From Nitrospira sp. (GTDB lineage Bacteria > Nitrospirota > Nitrospiria > Nitrospirales > Nitrospiraceae): DNA of 64,000 nucleotides. The DNA is taken from assembly GCA_029194675.1 (NCBI GenBank), contig JARFXP010000002.1, forward strand, positions 1,054,001 to 1,118,000, given 5' to 3'. Positions 3,387 through 11,276 of the stretch are shown here, in pieces. Position 1 is the stretch's first letter. Each line of letters starts with the position of its first letter. Below the pieces are notes generated by a model, which worked only from the letters and a program-made list of their open reading frames with translations, did no database searches and was not told the origin of the DNA. Both the position numbers and the translations under genes were made by a program.

Positions 3387-4577
3387 ATGAACCGCATCTA
3401 TGACGTCATTGTGGTCGGCAGTGGACCGGCCGGGTCTTGCACGGCATGGCGGCTGGCGAAGGCGGGAGTGTCGGTCGCCGTACTCGAGAAAGCTGCGCTG
3501 CCGCGGTACAAGACCTGTGGTGGCGGGATCGTTGGACGGGCCATGAACGCGTTACCACTGGATGTGCGCCACGTGGTCGAACAGGACTGTCATACGGCGC
3601 GGTTAAATTTTCTCGATGCAGGACTGTCTTTCACAACGCATCGACCGACTCCCATCGTCTCGATGACAATGCGAGACCAATTCGACTATGCCCTGCTTTC
3701 CGCTGCTCAAGAATCCGGAGCTGCCGTTCATCAACGCTGCGCCGTAGAAGACGTCTTGTTCCACGGCGATTTTGTCATGCTCGTCACCAACGGAGGCGCG
3801 ATGCAGGCCAAGTTTGTCGTGGCAGCCGACGGGGCGCTCAGCACGGTCGTGCGAAAAATGAGTCTGGTAGACGGGCACATCCTGATTCCGGCGCTTGAGT
3901 ACGAAGTGACGGTTCCTCATAACCGGTTGGACGCATTTCACGGCACAGCGAGATTTGATTTTGGATTGCTCGCCCACGGGTATGCCTGGGCCTTTCCCAA
4001 GAAAAATCATCTGTCGATCGGTGTGCTGTCGATGGTCGAACGTGGAAGCGATCTCAAGCGGCCAATGGTGCGCTATCTCGACCTGCTCGGCTGTGGTTCC
4101 GTCACGCAGGTCGCGCGTCAGGGGTTTGTCATTCCCATCCGACCACGAGGACAGTTCGTCGAGAAGCGCATCCTGTTGATCGGAGATGCCGCAGGCTTTG
4201 CCGATCCTGTCACCGGGGAAGGCATCTCGTTCGCCGTTCGAAGCGGCCTGATGGCAGCCCAATCGTTGATTGACGGGCATCTGGAAGAGGAGCCTGTACG
4301 ACAGGTGTATACCAGTTCACTGACTGAAACGATCCTTCCTGAACTGCAAAGAGGACGATTGCTGGCCCGACTGCTGTACGATTTTCCGCGCACCAAATCC
4401 TGGGCGTTTTCTCAACTGGGGCAGCGCCTCTGTGAAGCGGTGACGGACGTGATGGCCGGGAAGAGGCAGTATCAAGACTTGTCGCTCAAGCCACGAACCC
4501 TTCTCCGGCTGCTATCGCCAAAATGGTTGCGGAACTCCGCCCACAGGCCTGCTCGGCCACGCGATGATCGAGCCTGA
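3387..4577 (+). CDS. Geranylgeranyl reductase family FAD-dependent oxidoreductase
   Basis: A 396-residue flavoprotein. The N-terminal dinucleotide-binding motif GSGPAGSCTA lies at about residues 12-21. The YKTCGGGI segment near residue 46 is typical of the geranylgeranyl reductase family, and the second FAD motif GDAAGFADPVTGEGI is near residue 265. Members saturate isoprenoid chains (chlorophyll side chain, archaeal-type lipids, quinones) or act on other polyprenyl substrates. No pigment or isoprenoid genes are nearby, so the substrate cannot be named. The length is normal for the family. Confidence 0.85.
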   Translation: MNRIYDVIVVGSGPAGSCTAWRLAKAGVSVAVLEKAALPRYKTCGGGIVGRAMNALPLDVRHVVEQDCHTARLNFLDAGLSFTTHRPTPIVSMTMRDQFDYALLSAAQESGAAVHQRCAVEDVLFHGDFVMLVTNGGAMQAKFVVAADGALSTVVRKMSLVDGHILIPALEYEVTVPHNRLDAFHGTARFDFGLLAHGYAWAFPKKNHLSIGVLSMVERGSDLKRPMVRYLDLLGCGSVTQVARQGFVIPIRPRGQFVEKRILLIGDAAGFADPVTGEGISFAVRSGLMAAQSLIDGHLEEEPVRQVYTSSLTETILPELQRGRLLARLLYDFPRTKSWAFSQLGQRLCEAVTDVMAGKRQYQDLSLKPRTLLRLLSPKWLRNSAHRPARPRDDRA

Positions 4578-4621: not shown

Positions 4622-5350
4622 TCAGAAGCGCACTGACAGCCCCGCGATGACGTGATGCGAGTCATAAGTGGTCTTGAATGTTTCAGTGGCGGGGGCCGGC
4701 TGGTTGTTCTGATAGTCCAATTGGGTGGTGAAGTGCGTGAAGCGATATTGCGCGAACGCCCCGATTCGTTTCGTGATCATGACGGTTGCTCCGGCGTCGA
4801 CTTTGGCGCCGACGGAAACGTCGGTAGAGCTTTGTCCGCCCGGCTGAACAAACGTGTTTTGACCAGCGTAGGTAATGAACAGCGTAGGTCCGGCGGCAAT
4901 ATACGGCTGCACACGCCCATGGACGAATTGTTCATCTCGAAGGAGCGGGAGCCGTAGACGGAGCACGTCGAAGCCGATTCCCCATGCCGGCAAGCTCCAA
5001 TTGGCATCTACCGTGGTGTTGCCTCCGGTACCGGTCACGCCAACCTGTTGTCCCGGGGGCGTCTTGAGGTCGAAGAAGAAGACATCCAACCCGAATCCAA
5101 GCCAGTCCATCTTCCTCTTATCCAGCCAGTACCCCCCACGGCCACCGGCCGTCCAAGTGTTGTGTACGTTGAGGTCCTGGTAGGTCGTCGTGGTCCCTAA
5201 CGTGCTGGTCACGGTCAAGTCCGCGTTTTCGGTCCAGACGGCCCCCGCGTAGGCATCAACATACCATTCAGCTGATCCGTCCGTTGGGCATACCAGAAGC
5301 CCCACATACAGCGCGAGACCAAGAAGGCCGATGATCTTTCGATTGATCAT
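4622..5350 (-). CDS. Outer-membrane beta-barrel protein
   Basis: A 242-residue secreted protein. The signal peptide spans about residues 1-28 (hydrophobic core GLLGLALYVGLLVC). It is followed by alternating polar/aromatic strands (WYVDAYAGAVW, GGRGGYWL, FAQYRFTHF) and ends with HHVIAGLSVRF, whose final Phe is the usual outer-membrane insertion signal. This fits an OmpA/OmpW-like eight-strand barrel. The start at 5350 has GGGGGAG about 8 bases upstream, whereas an upstream in-frame ATG would spoil the signal peptide. The role is unknown. Confidence 0.82.
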   Translation of the reverse strand: MINRKIIGLLGLALYVGLLVCPTDGSAEWYVDAYAGAVWTENADLTVTSTLGTTTTYQDLNVHNTWTAGGRGGYWLDKRKMDWLGFGLDVFFFDLKTPPGQQVGVTGTGGNTTVDANWSLPAWGIGFDVLRLRLPLLRDEQFVHGRVQPYIAAGPTLFITYAGQNTFVQPGGQSSTDVSVGAKVDAGATVMITKRIGAFAQYRFTHFTTQLDYQNNQPAPATETFKTTYDSHHVIAGLSVRF

Positions 5351-5505
5351 GATCGTGCTCCCCCTGTGAGTAAATCCTCTTGGCCACAATTACATACCGA
5401 TAGCAGTTTCTTGGCCAGCACTATTCAATTTTTTGAACGTGGTTTATGACACGATAGGCGCGTTGTGGCCAGTTTCGCTGAGTGACACAGCAACCGGAGC
5501 CCTAG

Positions 5506-5656: not shown

Positions 5657-6616
5657 TCACGAGGCTTCCGCCAGCAGCTGCCGGCGCGTCACATAGAGAT
5701 TCGCCAAGCCGCAACTGATGAACAGCCAGTGGGTGTTCTTCGCCAACCCCCGGTAGCGGACGTTGGCCCACCCGAAGATCTGCTTGATCACCAAGAACGC
5801 ATGTTCGACTTTCGCCCGCACCTTCGACTTCGTGCGGTTCCGGGCCCGCTCGGTCTCACTCAGGGGCCGATGGCGATGCGCTTTAGTCTGCACAAAGCTC
5901 TTAGCCCTGGGGGCGTGGTGTCGAATCACGTCGCGCTGCCCGCTATACGCGGCATCGCCCCCCACCCGCGTCTCCTGTCCATGCAGCAACTTCGGTAACC
6001 CCTGGCTGTCATGCACATTCGCGGCAGTCGCGGCCACTGAATGAATCAGCTTGGTCTGGCTGTCCACACCGATATGCGCTTTCATGCCGAAGTACCACTG
6101 ATTGCCCTTCTTCGTCTGATGCATCTCCGGATCCCGCGCCTTCTGGCGATTCTTGGTTGAACTGGGCGCACTGATGATGGTGGCATCCACGATGGTCCCG
6201 CGACTGACTTTTATGCCGTGGGTTGCCAGATACGCGCCGATCCGTGCAAAGAGCCGCTCGCCCAGTTGGTGGGCTTCCAAGAGATGCCGAAACTTGCAGA
6301 TCGTCGTTTCATCGGGCACGGGCTCGCGGCCCAGATCAATGCCCACGAACTGCCGCATCGCCCGTGAGTCGTCCAGCGCCTCTTCCACGGCCGGATCCGA
6401 CAGGTTGAACCACTGTTGCAGACAATGGAGGCGCAGCATGCGCTCGACGCCCACCGGTGGCCGCCCGGGGCCTTCGGCCTTGGGATAGACCGGCTCAATG
6501 GCCGCCACCAGGTCCGCCCACGGCACGACACGGTTCATTTCATCCAGGAACTGCTCGCGGCGAGTGGGCTTGCGATACGGTTCAAACGTGACCTCGGCAA
6601 ATGTCTGCTGTTGCAT
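5657..6616 (-). CDS. IS5-family transposase (complete)
   Basis: A 319-residue DDE transposase, full length for the group. Residues 1-110 carry the DUF772-like DNA-binding region (GRPPVGVERMLRLHCLQQW). The catalytic core has Asp144, Asp221 and Glu271. There are no stops or frameshifts, so the element is probably still mobile. GGAGG lies about 7 bases upstream of the ATG at 6616. About 130 bases of non-coding IS sequence separate the stop from the right end. Confidence 0.95.
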   Translation of the reverse strand: MQQQTFAEVTFEPYRKPTRREQFLDEMNRVVPWADLVAAIEPVYPKAEGPGRPPVGVERMLRLHCLQQWFNLSDPAVEEALDDSRAMRQFVGIDLGREPVPDETTICKFRHLLEAHQLGERLFARIGAYLATHGIKVSRGTIVDATIISAPSSTKNRQKARDPEMHQTKKGNQWYFGMKAHIGVDSQTKLIHSVAATAANVHDSQGLPKLLHGQETRVGGDAAYSGQRDVIRHHAPRAKSFVQTKAHRHRPLSETERARNRTKSKVRAKVEHAFLVIKQIFGWANVRYRGLAKNTHWLFISCGLANLYVTRRQLLAEAS

Positions 6617-6686: not shown

Positions 6687-6782
6687 CTAGCCGGGTGGCT
6701 TTCCAATCGCGGTCCAGTGCGGTATCCTCCCGGGACGCATGAACGAGAGGAGCCTTGACTGAGCTTCAAGATTTTCTCCTGC

Positions 6783-7778
6783 GTGTCCCGCATGTTTGGT
6801 AGATCTTCGAATCACGTTGCCGGCTGTCTACTTGTAACGTGTAGTGGACTCTGGACTGGATGCAGCACCACCCCTGTGGCTCAATCTGACCGTGACCGAG
6901 AGTCACAGACCGTGTTCCATCAGTTGGCCGGTCTGGAGGTCGCGTCGGATCGTTTGTACCAGGCGGTCGCGGACCAAGCCGATGTTGTGGGGTTCAGCCA
7001 CCAGTTGGAGGTCGAGTCTGACCTTGCCGATCCGTTCACTTCATCAGAGATGGAGCGCATCGCGCAGTCGTTTGTGCGTTCGCTCAAAGTCATGCTGTTC
7101 GATCTGGCCCCGGCCAATTTCTGGGAGCACCATCTCGCGCAATACTATGCCTCAACATTGTCGGCTCCAGAAGCCAGGCGGTTGGTCAGGAGATATGGCA
7201 GCGAGCTCCTCACCCCGACGTCCAGGGTGCAGGAACTTCGTTGGAATTTTGTGACGCACCGCCTGCCGGACCTTTTGCCGGTGGTGCGGGCACAGTCACA
7301 GCGGCTCCACATCTCGAATGAGGCGATGGCACCGACGCTCTTGCCGGGAGACCATGTAATTGCGCATAGGGCTGCGTATCATGCAGCCGAACCTCAGCGC
7401 GGAGATATAGTCGTCTATCGCTATCCGGACGAGAATGGAACGCTCTTTCTCCACCGCGTGATCGGGGTTCCCGGCGATCGGATCGATATTCGTGATCAGG
7501 TGGTCTCTGTGAACGAAGAAGCCGTCGCCGAATCCTATGTGCAACATACGGACCGATCCAGTATGGTCGGAAACGTCCGTGATAACCTCGGGCCTATGAT
7601 CGTGTCTCCCGACGCCTATTTTGTTCTGGGTGACAACCGGGAAGAGAGTCTGGATAGTCGCTTCTTGGGACCCGTCAGCAAGGAGCACATTCTAGGGCAG
7701 GTGCGGTTCATCTACTGGTCGGTTGATCCCAGCACGAGGACTCCTCGTTGGGATCGTCTCAATCAACCGGTGCAGTGA
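6783..7778 (+). CDS. Signal-peptidase-I-like lipoprotein lacking the catalytic serine
   Basis: A 331-residue protein in two parts. It starts with a lipoprotein signal (LWTGC, lipid Cys27). Residues about 35-165 are helical and resemble DUF2059-type domains (FWEHHLAQYYAS). Residues about 170-325 are a signal peptidase S26 fold: box B reads ISNEAMAPTL with Ala181 where the serine nucleophile belongs, the box D region FLHRVIGVPGD has His224 in place of the usual lysine, and box E GDNREESLDSR is at about 283-293. The fold is therefore kept but the nucleophile is absent, suggesting a non-proteolytic role. The start is uncertain: GTG 6783 or ATG 6792, neither with a good ribosome site. Confidence 0.8.
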   Translation: MSRMFGRSSNHVAGCLLVTCSGLWTGCSTTPVAQSDRDRESQTVFHQLAGLEVASDRLYQAVADQADVVGFSHQLEVESDLADPFTSSEMERIAQSFVRSLKVMLFDLAPANFWEHHLAQYYASTLSAPEARRLVRRYGSELLTPTSRVQELRWNFVTHRLPDLLPVVRAQSQRLHISNEAMAPTLLPGDHVIAHRAAYHAAEPQRGDIVVYRYPDENGTLFLHRVIGVPGDRIDIRDQVVSVNEEAVAESYVQHTDRSSMVGNVRDNLGPMIVSPDAYFVLGDNREESLDSRFLGPVSKEHILGQVRFIYWSVDPSTRTPRWDRLNQPVQ

Positions 7779-7913: not shown

Positions 7914-10703
7914 GTGGGTTTCACCGTGCTCGGAATGTGCGATCCCTTGCTTGCCGCTTGCTCGATGCTGCTTGGTGGAGCGGCTGCCTACGTCATCCTT
8001 AGCATCGCCGAACGAATGCGCTCGCCCGACCAAGGACCAGTCAGGGTGCGATGGCTGAGCATCGGTGCCGTCGCAGCCGGCCTTGAAATATGGGCGATCC
8101 ACTACGTCGGCAATCTGGCGTTCTGTCCGCCGGTCTCGGCAACCCAGGACTCAGCGCTCGCCGTTCTTTCCCTCCTGTCCGCCGGGGCGACAGGAGCCGT
8201 GGCTGTGCATATGATCAGCAGTCATGCCGACTGTCGAATGCGGCTCGTCTCCGGAGGGATGCTGATGGGTGCTTGCATGATCCTAACCCATTTCTCCAGC
8301 ATGCTGGCGGTCCACCAGCCGATCGATCTCCAGCATGACGTGCTGCTCTTTGTGCTGTCGGTTGTCGGAATTGTGGCACTGAGCATCATCGTCCTCGCAC
8401 TCGGGGCCTGGAATATCGCGTACGGAAACTGGCGGGTGACGGAAAAGGCGAGTGCCATGGGATTTGCTCTTTCCGGCTCTCACCTCATCGGCATGATGCC
8501 GACGTACGGTATTTCCAACGTGACGACCAGTGCTCCGCCGCCGGGAATCGAGGTGGATCTACTCGCGGTTGTGGCCGTATCGCTCTCGACACTCCTGGCC
8601 ATCATCGATCGGCAAGTGACGGCGGCATCCAGTCTGGCGCGTGATAGCCATGCCCGGATGACCGAGGCCATCGAGAGTGTTCCCCAATGGTTTGCTCTGT
8701 TTGACCCGGACGACCGTCTGGTCATCTGTAACCGCAAGTATCGCGAAGTGGTGTCGGGGAGAGGGGCCGAGGTACAGCTCGGCGATTCGTTCGAATCGAT
8801 CATTCGCCGTATGGCCGAACGGGGCGACATCCCCGCTGCGATCGGGGATGTCGAATCCTGGATACGGAAACGCCTCGACATGCACCACAATCCTCAAGGG
8901 CTCTACATGCAATACCGTTCCAGCGGCGAGTGGATCCAGATTAACGAACGGAGGACGCACGACGGAGGCATTGTCTTCATCGCCACCGACATTACGGCTC
9001 TGAAACGTGCGGAACAGGCTGCCGAAGATGCCAAGGCGCGGTTAGCGGATTCGTTGGCGTTGGTGGAGGCCGCGAAAGCCCGCATGCAGGAAGAACTGAA
9101 TGTCGGCCGGGATATTCAGCGGAGTATGCTCCCACGCGTATTTCCGGCTTTCCCGGATCGGAAGGAGCTGGAGCTCTATGCGGTGCTCGAACCGGCCTTG
9201 GAAATCGGAGGCGATTTGTACGATTTCTTTCTGGTCGATGACCATCGGCTCTGTTTCGTCATCGGCGATGTGTCGGGCAACGGAGTCCCTGCTGCGCTGT
9301 TCATGGCGATGACCAAGATTATGGTGAAAACCAGGGCGGCCTCCGATCCCTCACCGGCCAGTATCGTCACTCATGTGAACGATGCGCTCAGCGCGGAGAA
9401 CGATTCTTGTATGTTTGTCACCCTGTATCTGGGCATCTTAAACCTCCGCGACGGCACACTGCTTACCACGAACGCAGGTCATAATCCTCCTCTGTTGAAG
9501 CGACGAGATGGACAGTTCGAATGGTTGACGGCTCAAGACGGACCCCTTGTCGGTCCCATGCCTGGCATCGCATTCAAGGAGAGCCTCATCCAATTGGGAC
9601 CGGGAGATGAGCTCTTCTTGTACACCGATGGGGTTACCGAAGCAGACAATAGATGGCGCGAATTGTTCGGCAAAGACCGGTTGAAAACGGTTCTCGACCA
9701 ATCCATGGCTGTTTCAGTGGTCGATCGGATCGGTGATGTCATGAAGGCGGTGAAGACCTTCGCCGGTGATGCGCCTCAGGCGGACGATATCACCATCTTG
9801 GGGATACGGTATCTCGGCGTCGCCCCGTCCGATGTGGCGGTCAGCGTGTTTCGTCAGACCATGCTCAACCAATTGGCGTCCATTCCTACGATACAGCTGG
9901 CGTTTGAGCGATATGTGGGTCAATGGGAACGGGCCAAGCCGCTGATCCCGACACTCAACATGGCGCTGGATGATCTCCTCAACAACATCGTGCAGTATGC
10001 CTTCCCGAATGACCCGACAGAGCACACCATTGTGGTGGAAGGCGAAGTGCGCGATGAGTGCGTGGCCTTGACCATGACGGATGACGGGATTCCCTTCAAC
10101 CCTTTAACGGTCGCCGCGCCGGATCTGTCGCTGCTCCTGCACGAACGCGAGATCGGCGGTTTGGGAATTCATCTGGTGCGCTCTATGTTCGACGAGGTGA
10201 CGTACCATCGCAACGTGGGCTGCAACGTCTTGACCGTGAAAAAGAAGTTCGTATCTAAGCCGTCGGTCTCTATGAGACATCCTGATCAAACCGGAATCAG
10301 GGTGTTCGAAGGTGGATGGAAGTCGTCACAACCAGGCCGAGACTCAACGAGCATGGCCATGAGCGTCACATCACACCGAAGCGGTGATGTGATGATCGTC
10401 ACCCCGCAGAACCGCTTCGACACGAGCAGCGCACCGGCGGTCGAGCGCATCCTGACGGAATATATCGAACGCGGGGAACGGCGAATAATCCTGGATCTCT
10501 CTCGAATTTCGTACATCTCATCTATTGGACTACGAGTGATCTTGAAAGCCGTCATGACCATGACCCGAACAGGCGGAAGAGTCGTACTGAGTGGAGGGAA
10601 CGACCACGTCGCCACGGTGCTCCAATTGAGTGGAGCGCTGATGATGAGCCTCCATGCCCCCACGCTGGAAGACGCCGTCTCGAAGGTCCGGGGGCCACGC
10701 TAA
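7914..10703 (+). CDS. MHYT-like/PAS/PP2C phosphatase/HATPase/STAS partner-switch protein
   Basis: A 929-residue membrane protein that seems to carry a whole partner switch. Residues 1-230 are seven or so hydrophobic helices with MHYT-type signatures (WAIHYVGNLAF, LTHFSSMLAV). A PAS-type domain spans about 250-360, followed by a short coiled coil. A SpoIIE/RsbU PP2C phosphatase spans about 390-620 (IGGDLYDF, GDVSGNG, ADDITIL). An RsbW/SpoIIAB-like HATPase spans about 650-770 (N-box NMALDDLLNNIVQYAF, DDGIPFNP, GGLGIHLV). A STAS domain spans about 820-925 with SSIG at the expected phosphoserine loop. The start is uncertain between GTG 7914, GTG 7926 and ATG 7935. Confidence 0.88.
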   Translation: MGFTVLGMCDPLLAACSMLLGGAAAYVILSIAERMRSPDQGPVRVRWLSIGAVAAGLEIWAIHYVGNLAFCPPVSATQDSALAVLSLLSAGATGAVAVHMISSHADCRMRLVSGGMLMGACMILTHFSSMLAVHQPIDLQHDVLLFVLSVVGIVALSIIVLALGAWNIAYGNWRVTEKASAMGFALSGSHLIGMMPTYGISNVTTSAPPPGIEVDLLAVVAVSLSTLLAIIDRQVTAASSLARDSHARMTEAIESVPQWFALFDPDDRLVICNRKYREVVSGRGAEVQLGDSFESIIRRMAERGDIPAAIGDVESWIRKRLDMHHNPQGLYMQYRSSGEWIQINERRTHDGGIVFIATDITALKRAEQAAEDAKARLADSLALVEAAKARMQEELNVGRDIQRSMLPRVFPAFPDRKELELYAVLEPALEIGGDLYDFFLVDDHRLCFVIGDVSGNGVPAALFMAMTKIMVKTRAASDPSPASIVTHVNDALSAENDSCMFVTLYLGILNLRDGTLLTTNAGHNPPLLKRRDGQFEWLTAQDGPLVGPMPGIAFKESLIQLGPGDELFLYTDGVTEADNRWRELFGKDRLKTVLDQSMAVSVVDRIGDVMKAVKTFAGDAPQADDITILGIRYLGVAPSDVAVSVFRQTMLNQLASIPTIQLAFERYVGQWERAKPLIPTLNMALDDLLNNIVQYAFPNDPTEHTIVVEGEVRDECVALTMTDDGIPFNPLTVAAPDLSLLLHEREIGGLGIHLVRSMFDEVTYHRNVGCNVLTVKKKFVSKPSVSMRHPDQTGIRVFEGGWKSSQPGRDSTSMAMSVTSHRSGDVMIVTPQNRFDTSSAPAVERILTEYIERGERRIILDLSRISYISSIGLRVILKAVMTMTRTGGRVVLSGGNDHVATVLQLSGALMMSLHAPTLEDAVSKVRGPR

Positions 10704-10892: not shown

Positions 10893-11276
10893 ATGGAACA
10901 AGAGACCCGACACACGTTGGCGATGACCTCTCGCGAGAACGCCGGAGTTACCTTCGTCAAGATGCAGGGTAGCCTTTCCGCCACCACGGCCGAACAAGGA
11001 ATCCAGGAGATGAAAAGGATCCTGGACACCGGTACGAAAAAGGTCGTCATCAACCTGGCTGATGTGGACTATATCAGCAGCGGCGGCATCAGGGTCCTTA
11101 TTCTGGCGGGCAAGCAGCTCAACAACGTTCAAGGGCAGATGAAAATTGCCGCAGCGAAGGGGATGGTCAAAGAAGCTCTTCAGGCAAGCGGTTTTGATCT
11201 GCTAAGCCGCGTGTATGGTGAAAATATTCAATTGTGCAACACGGAAGAAGAGGCTGTGGCCGCTTTTTCAAGCTAG
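10893..11276 (+). CDS. STAS-domain anti-sigma factor antagonist
   Basis: A 127-residue single STAS domain of the SpoIIAA/RsbV type. The loop YISSGGIRVL near residues 59-68 carries the serines that anti-sigma kinases phosphorylate in this family. AAGGAG lies 7 bases before the ATG. It lies 189 bases downstream of the multidomain phosphatase/kinase on the same strand, so that protein's PP2C and HATPase domains are its most likely partners. The sigma factor or other final target is not visible here. Confidence 0.88.
   Translation: MEQETRHTLAMTSRENAGVTFVKMQGSLSATTAEQGIQEMKRILDTGTKKVVINLADVDYISSGGIRVLILAGKQLNNVQGQMKIAAAKGMVKEALQASGFDLLSRVYGENIQLCNTEEEAVAAFSS

What the first reader, a model, noticed from the sequence alone, without database searches (positions are those of the whole stretch)
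6783..7778. Signal-peptidase-I fold without its nucleophile, on a lipoprotein
Box B reads SNEAMAPTL with Ala181 where the serine must be, and the general base position is His224. Other S26 boxes are well kept. Joined to a DUF2059-like helical domain and a lipid anchor, this is likely a pseudo-peptidase that binds rather than cuts, perhaps a sensor or chaperone for the next genes.
Basis: partly seen in the sequence, partly recalled or inferred. Interest (0 to 1): 0.7.

Follow-up and report, generated by a model that had tools for sequence, protein, structure and literature searches.

The report
Dead signal peptidase lipoprotein in Nitrospira
A nitrite-oxidising bacterium carries, besides its normal signal peptidase, a secreted and probably lipid-anchored copy whose cutting residue has been missing since the origin of a small protein family; the rest of the fold is kept by selection, so it probably holds peptides rather than cutting them.

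Summary
The gene at 6783-7778 (true start probably CTG at 6759) encodes a type I signal peptidase domain (PF10502 E 5e-39, TIGR02227 E 2e-41) with Ala181 at the nucleophile and His224 at the general base. Neither a sequencing error nor a decaying gene explains it. Of 36 homologues in the genus Nitrospira, 28 have Ala, 3 Thr and 5 Ser; relatives in two other Nitrospiraceae genera have Ala or Gly but keep the Lys. On a tree built without those two columns, Ser loss is ancestral to the family, Lys to His came later, and the five Ser proteins form one derived clade (98/93): an apparent regain of Ser beside a His. The domain is under purifying selection (dN/dS about 0.05-0.2 in most close pairs). 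Cleft-lining hydrophobic residues and the box E scaffold are retained. The same genome also carries a normal Ser-containing lepB next to lepA, cut by a contig end. The N-terminal helical domain occurs only in Nitrospiraceae; likeness to DUF2059 is weak. Closest known analogues are the dead SipA and SpsA. Most likely it is a periplasmic peptide-binding pseudo-signal-peptidase. The partner is unknown, and "sensor for the next genes" is weakly supported.

The parts
6747..6752 (+). Shine-Dalgarno-like GAGGAG, conserved in orthologues
6759..7778 (+). pseudo-signal-peptidase gene with its likely conserved CTG start (339 aa); called 6783-7778 with a GTG start by ORF finding
6759..6863 (+). signal peptide with lipobox-like LWTGC; Cys27 (6861-6863) is the presumed lipidated residue
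6864..7298 (+). N-terminal all-helical domain (residues 28-172), Nitrospiraceae-only, weakly DUF2059-like
7299..7760 (+). S26A signal peptidase I domain (residues 173-326)
7323..7325 (+). GCG codon, Ala181 at the nucleophile position (E. coli Ser90)
7452..7454 (+). CAC codon, His224 at the general-base position (E. coli Lys145)
7629..7661 (+). box E GDNREESLDSR; invariant Gly283, Asp284, Asn285, Ser289, Asp291, Ser292, Arg293
3387..4577 (+). neighbour: FAD-dependent oxidoreductase / geranylgeranyl reductase-like, syntenic in the genus
4622..5389 (-). neighbour: outer-membrane beta-barrel protein (PF13505), syntenic in most of the genomes compared
7914..10703 (+). neighbour: MHYT-PAS-SpoIIE-HATPase-STAS (RsbU-type) phosphatase
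10893..11276 (+). neighbour: STAS anti-sigma antagonist

Best explanation
A secreted, probably lipid-anchored pseudo-signal-peptidase. SHOWN by sequence: the type I signal peptidase catalytic domain lost its serine nucleophile at the base of a Nitrospiraceae-specific family, then (in Nitrospira) its lysine, and has been kept by purifying selection since, with its peptide-cleft chemistry largely retained and the usual transmembrane anchor replaced by a signal peptide plus a helical domain. INFERRED: the cleft binds an extended peptide segment of an envelope protein (signal-peptide-like or terminal strand) without cutting it, and the helical domain positions or recruits a partner, so the protein acts as a chaperone or assembly factor in the way proposed for streptococcal SipA. 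The client is not identified.
For: Ser replaced in 31 of 36 genus homologues and in all five outgroup or paralogous members. Tree without the catalytic columns: Ser versus not-Ser is one change. dN/dS in the SPase domain 0.03-0.25 for most close pairs, 0.4-0.5 in a few pairs with very low dS. Cleft positions equivalent to E. coli 84, 86, 91, 95, 101, 132, 143, 144 stay almost wholly hydrophobic, and Gly272, Asp273, Asn274, Ser278, Asp280, Ser281, Arg282 equivalents are invariant, while the nucleophile loop (87-89) drifts. AlphaFold model matches SPase structures, including SipA 4n31 at TM 0.69 by target. A separate, membrane-anchored LepB with box B serine is present in the same genome. No TM segment after Cys27 by hydropathy.
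Against: The eight cleft residues are not more conserved than random residues of the domain (P 0.30), so peptide binding specifically is not proven. The active-site loop of the model (287-292) has pLDDT under 50. The client is unknown. The five Ser-bearing orthologues could be active.
Confidence: 0.6

Rival explanations
1. Envelope sensor for the adjacent RsbU-type partner-switching phosphatase: the lipoprotein binds a peptide signal and modulates the MHYT/SpoIIE phosphatase.
For: Co-directional and adjacent in most Nitrospira; all 32 genomes with the gene have this phosphatase, against 10 of 27 without it.
Against: The phosphatase occurs without the gene in 10 genomes; relatives in genus g2 lack these neighbours; in G006 and G056 the outer-membrane gene lies between the two while the SPase-like gene stays intact; co-occurrence is confounded by ancestry within one genus.
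Confidence: 0.12
2. Still a peptidase, using another nucleophile, or Thr/Ser in some members with His as base.
For: Scaffold around the base is invariant. Five members have Ser plus His, and His is the base in the human Sec11 signal peptidase (PMC12984324). Three have Thr.
Against: 31 of 36 genus members have no Ser at the site; positions 178-180 vary with no conserved Ser, Thr or Cys; outgroups with Lys still lack Ser.
Confidence: 0.12
3. A decaying former signal peptidase (pseudogene).
For: Catalytic residues lost; a 3' remnant of a second copy exists in G006 and G056; the copies in G001 and G028 are split between frames.
Against: Full length and open in frame in 29 of 32 genomes; low dN/dS; conserved synteny.
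Confidence: 0.03
4. Sequencing error GCG for TCG.
For: A single base would suffice.
Against: An Ala codon in 28 of 36 genus homologues from separate assemblies.
Confidence: 0.005

Closest known systems
SipA of Streptococcus pyogenes (signal-peptidase-like protein essential for pilus polymerisation, PMC4049620)
   Same: SPase I fold without Ser and Lys, no cleavage shown for SipA, peptide cleft retained in SipA and cleft residue chemistry largely retained here; present alongside an active SPase
   Different: SipA has Asp/Gly at the dyad, a TM anchor, lies in sortase pilus clusters of Gram-positives, and lost the Gly272 and Ser278 equivalents; here Ala/His, a signal peptide plus helical domain, and Gly283/Ser289 invariant. 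Only about 27% identity; no pilus genes among the neighbours checked
SpsA of Staphylococcus aureus (inactive SPase paralogue, PMC12445088)
   Same: second, inactive SPase beside an active one
   Different: membrane-anchored without the extra domain (own knowledge); no lipobox; Firmicutes
LepB / type I signal peptidase of Nitrospira itself
   Same: same domain, boxes C-E; likely evolutionary source
   Different: LepB keeps Ser and Lys and an N-terminal TM helix, next to lepA
ER/archaeal-type Ser-His signal peptidases (Sec11; SipW from own knowledge)
   Same: His at the base position
   Different: domain matches the bacterial model (141 bits) far better than the archaeal one (26 bits); no Ser in most members
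DUF2059 (PF09832)
   Same: weak profile and fold resemblance of the helical domain
   Different: no Pfam match; fold match not significant

Membership tests
Type I signal peptidase, S26A, as a sequence family | S26 domain with boxes B-E | tested here: met
   PF10502 134 bits against cut-off 22.9; TIGR02227 141.5 against 47
Type I signal peptidase, S26A, as an enzyme | serine nucleophile in box B | tested here: not met
   Ala181; Ala/Thr/Gly in nearly all homologues
Type I signal peptidase, S26A, as an enzyme | lysine general base in box D | tested here: not met
   His224; Lys kept only in the g2 and g4 homologues
Type I signal peptidase, S26A, as an enzyme | N-terminal transmembrane anchor next to the catalytic domain | tested here: not met
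   no hydrophobic segment after Cys27; LepB of the genus has one
Type I signal peptidase, S26A, as an enzyme | cleaves pre-proteins | not testable with these tools
   needs a biochemical assay
SipA-type pseudo-signal-peptidase | dyad lost, fold and cleft retained | tested here: met
   fold from a model of moderate confidence, cleft judged by residue chemistry only
SipA-type pseudo-signal-peptidase | encoded in a sortase/pilus gene cluster | tested here: not met
   neighbours are oxidoreductase, outer-membrane barrel, RsbU and STAS
Bacterial lipoprotein | signal peptide plus lipobox Cys | tested here: inconclusive
   Cys27 at least 90% conserved with G/A/S before it, but Trp at -3 is unusual; absent in the g2 homologues
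DUF2059 | match to PF09832 | tested here: not met
   no match in 30 members
DUF2059 | same helical fold | tested here: inconclusive
   6f03 and 3oao in top ranks but E above 1, TM 0.34-0.38; 3oao is named DUF2059 in its entry, that 6f03 is DUF2059 is recalled

The most novel reading that the evidence does not exclude
A signal peptidase lineage dead since its origin regained a serine in one Nitrospira subclade, next to a histidine rather than the old lysine, and may have re-evolved an ER-type Ser-His peptidase from a pseudo-enzyme.
Probability: 0.12. Interest if true: 0.85.

Novelty: new variant of a known kind. Interest (0 to 1): 0.48.

Why it matters
As far as the library searched shows, pseudo-signal-peptidases are described from Gram-positives; this is a conserved Gram-negative family, confined to Nitrospira and close relatives, that moved from the membrane to a secreted helical-domain protein and lost catalysis. 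The family preserves the order of loss (Ser first, Lys later) and an apparent regain of Ser, which makes 'can a dead protease come back' testable with natural sequences. Its client could reveal an unknown envelope assembly step in Nitrospira.

Tried and rejected
A first orthologue table mis-read minus-strand loci and was redone. The PDB search with the N-terminal profile gave only chance hits. The plasmid search with the N-terminal domain found nothing. Partial matches in G002 and G019 looked like degenerate copies but are canonical LepB. Literature on Nitrospira with signal peptidase: 12 papers judged by title and abstract, none describing this family; 'pseudoprotease' with signal peptidase gave nothing relevant. 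The conservation test of eight cleft residues was not significant (P 0.30), so cleft retention is stated only as chemistry kept. Considered and rejected: sequencing error, pseudogene, LexA/S24 autoprotease (S24 match below cut-off).

Full report
WHAT IS THERE. The window lies in a 5.2 Mb Nitrospira-like genome: relatives in its genus are on record as Nitrospira sp.. The gene encodes a signal sequence ending in a conserved Cys, a helical domain and a C-terminal type I signal peptidase domain. Ala181 and His224 sit at the catalytic Ser and Lys; the alignment to the S. aureus SpsB structures is unambiguous, and one of those (4wvg) itself reads Ala there (that 4wvg is an engineered Ser-to-Ala mutant is own knowledge).

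CONSERVATION OF THE LOSS. Of 59 genus genomes, 32 hold the gene by my count of the table. Among 36 homologues read from the genus, 28 have Ala, 3 Thr and 5 Ser; the base is His in 34 and Gln in 2. A divergent 45% paralogue has Gly/Gln. The N-terminal domain was found in 20 of 246 phylum genomes and 22 of 117 family genomes, only in Nitrospiraceae, in three genera. The members of the two other genera have Ala/Lys (three) and Gly/Lys (one).

ORDER OF EVENTS. Trees built without the two catalytic columns place the Ser proteins as one derived clade, support 86/78 on the SPase domain and 98/93 on the whole protein; 'Ser versus not' needs one change. With canonical Ser/Lys LepB as the source, the likeliest history is loss of Ser at the base, Lys to His in Nitrospira, and one regain of Ser. 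The regain is an inference by parsimony. L080 and L039 are long branches, and in the SPase-domain tree L080 falls with the canonical proteins, so its loss may be independent.

CONSTRAINT. dN/dS (own Nei-Gojobori calculation) for the SPase domain is 0.03-0.25 in most close pairs and 0.4-0.5 in four pairs with very low dS. The domain is more conserved than the helical one (mean entropy 0.74 against 1.06 bits). The nucleophile loop has drifted (Pro87, Ser88 and Gly89 equivalents vary) while Met91, Gly272, Asp273, Asn274, Ser278, Asp280, Ser281 and Arg282 equivalents are invariant. Cleft-lining positions stay almost wholly hydrophobic, but are not more conserved than chance sets of residues of the domain (P 0.30).

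STRUCTURE. AlphaFold with 30 sequences: mean pLDDT 75.6; Foldseek gives 24 PDB matches at E below 0.001, all SPase I or SipA. The helical domain alone folds at pLDDT 87.6 with no significant PDB match; two DUF2059-type structures are among the top six.

CONTEXT. Oxidoreductase, outer-membrane barrel (opposite strand), this gene, MHYT-PAS-SpoIIE phosphatase and STAS are syntenic through the genus, with exceptions for the barrel. An IS5-type transposase (5657-6616) lies between barrel and gene in this window. In genus g2 the neighbours differ. All 32 gene-bearing genomes have the phosphatase; 10 have it without the gene (Fisher P 3e-8 ignoring ancestry).

HOW IT MOST LIKELY WORKS. Sequence shows a non-catalytic, selected, secreted SPase fold. 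By analogy with SipA, which lacks the dyad, keeps the cleft and is needed for pilus polymerisation (PMC4049620), I propose peptide holding in the envelope. The client and the benefit are not shown. Inactive SpsA is a second precedent (PMC12445088). His as base is known from Sec11 (PMC12984324), which makes the Ser/His subclade the interesting exception.

NOT SETTLED. Lipidation, membrane location, client, start codon, and activity of the Ser/His members.

Noticed in passing
window 6747-6761: Likely non-canonical CTG start codon with a strong Shine-Dalgarno, conserved as CTG or TTG, and ATG in one subclade; the GTG/ATG starts found by ORF calling are not conserved.
   Followed up: partly
L039 2019-3158 (G038:C20): Second full-length paralogue at another locus with Gly/Gln at the dyad and no lipobox Cys.
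   Followed up: partly
L042 2066-3457 (G057:C2): A multi-TM SPase homologue without the helical domain, with Ala at the nucleophile and Arg at the base: another dead SPase in Nitrospira.
   Followed up: no
L049 7006-7149; [quoted passage not shown]
   Followed up: partly
window 5657-6616: IS5-type transposase inserted between the barrel gene and this gene.
   Followed up: no
L057 1372-1611 (G000:C13): Own lepB with intact box B next to lepA is cut by a contig end, so its Lys was not read.
   Followed up: yes
L033 11693-12802: Partial second copy of the RsbU-type phosphatase C-terminal half downstream.
   Followed up: no
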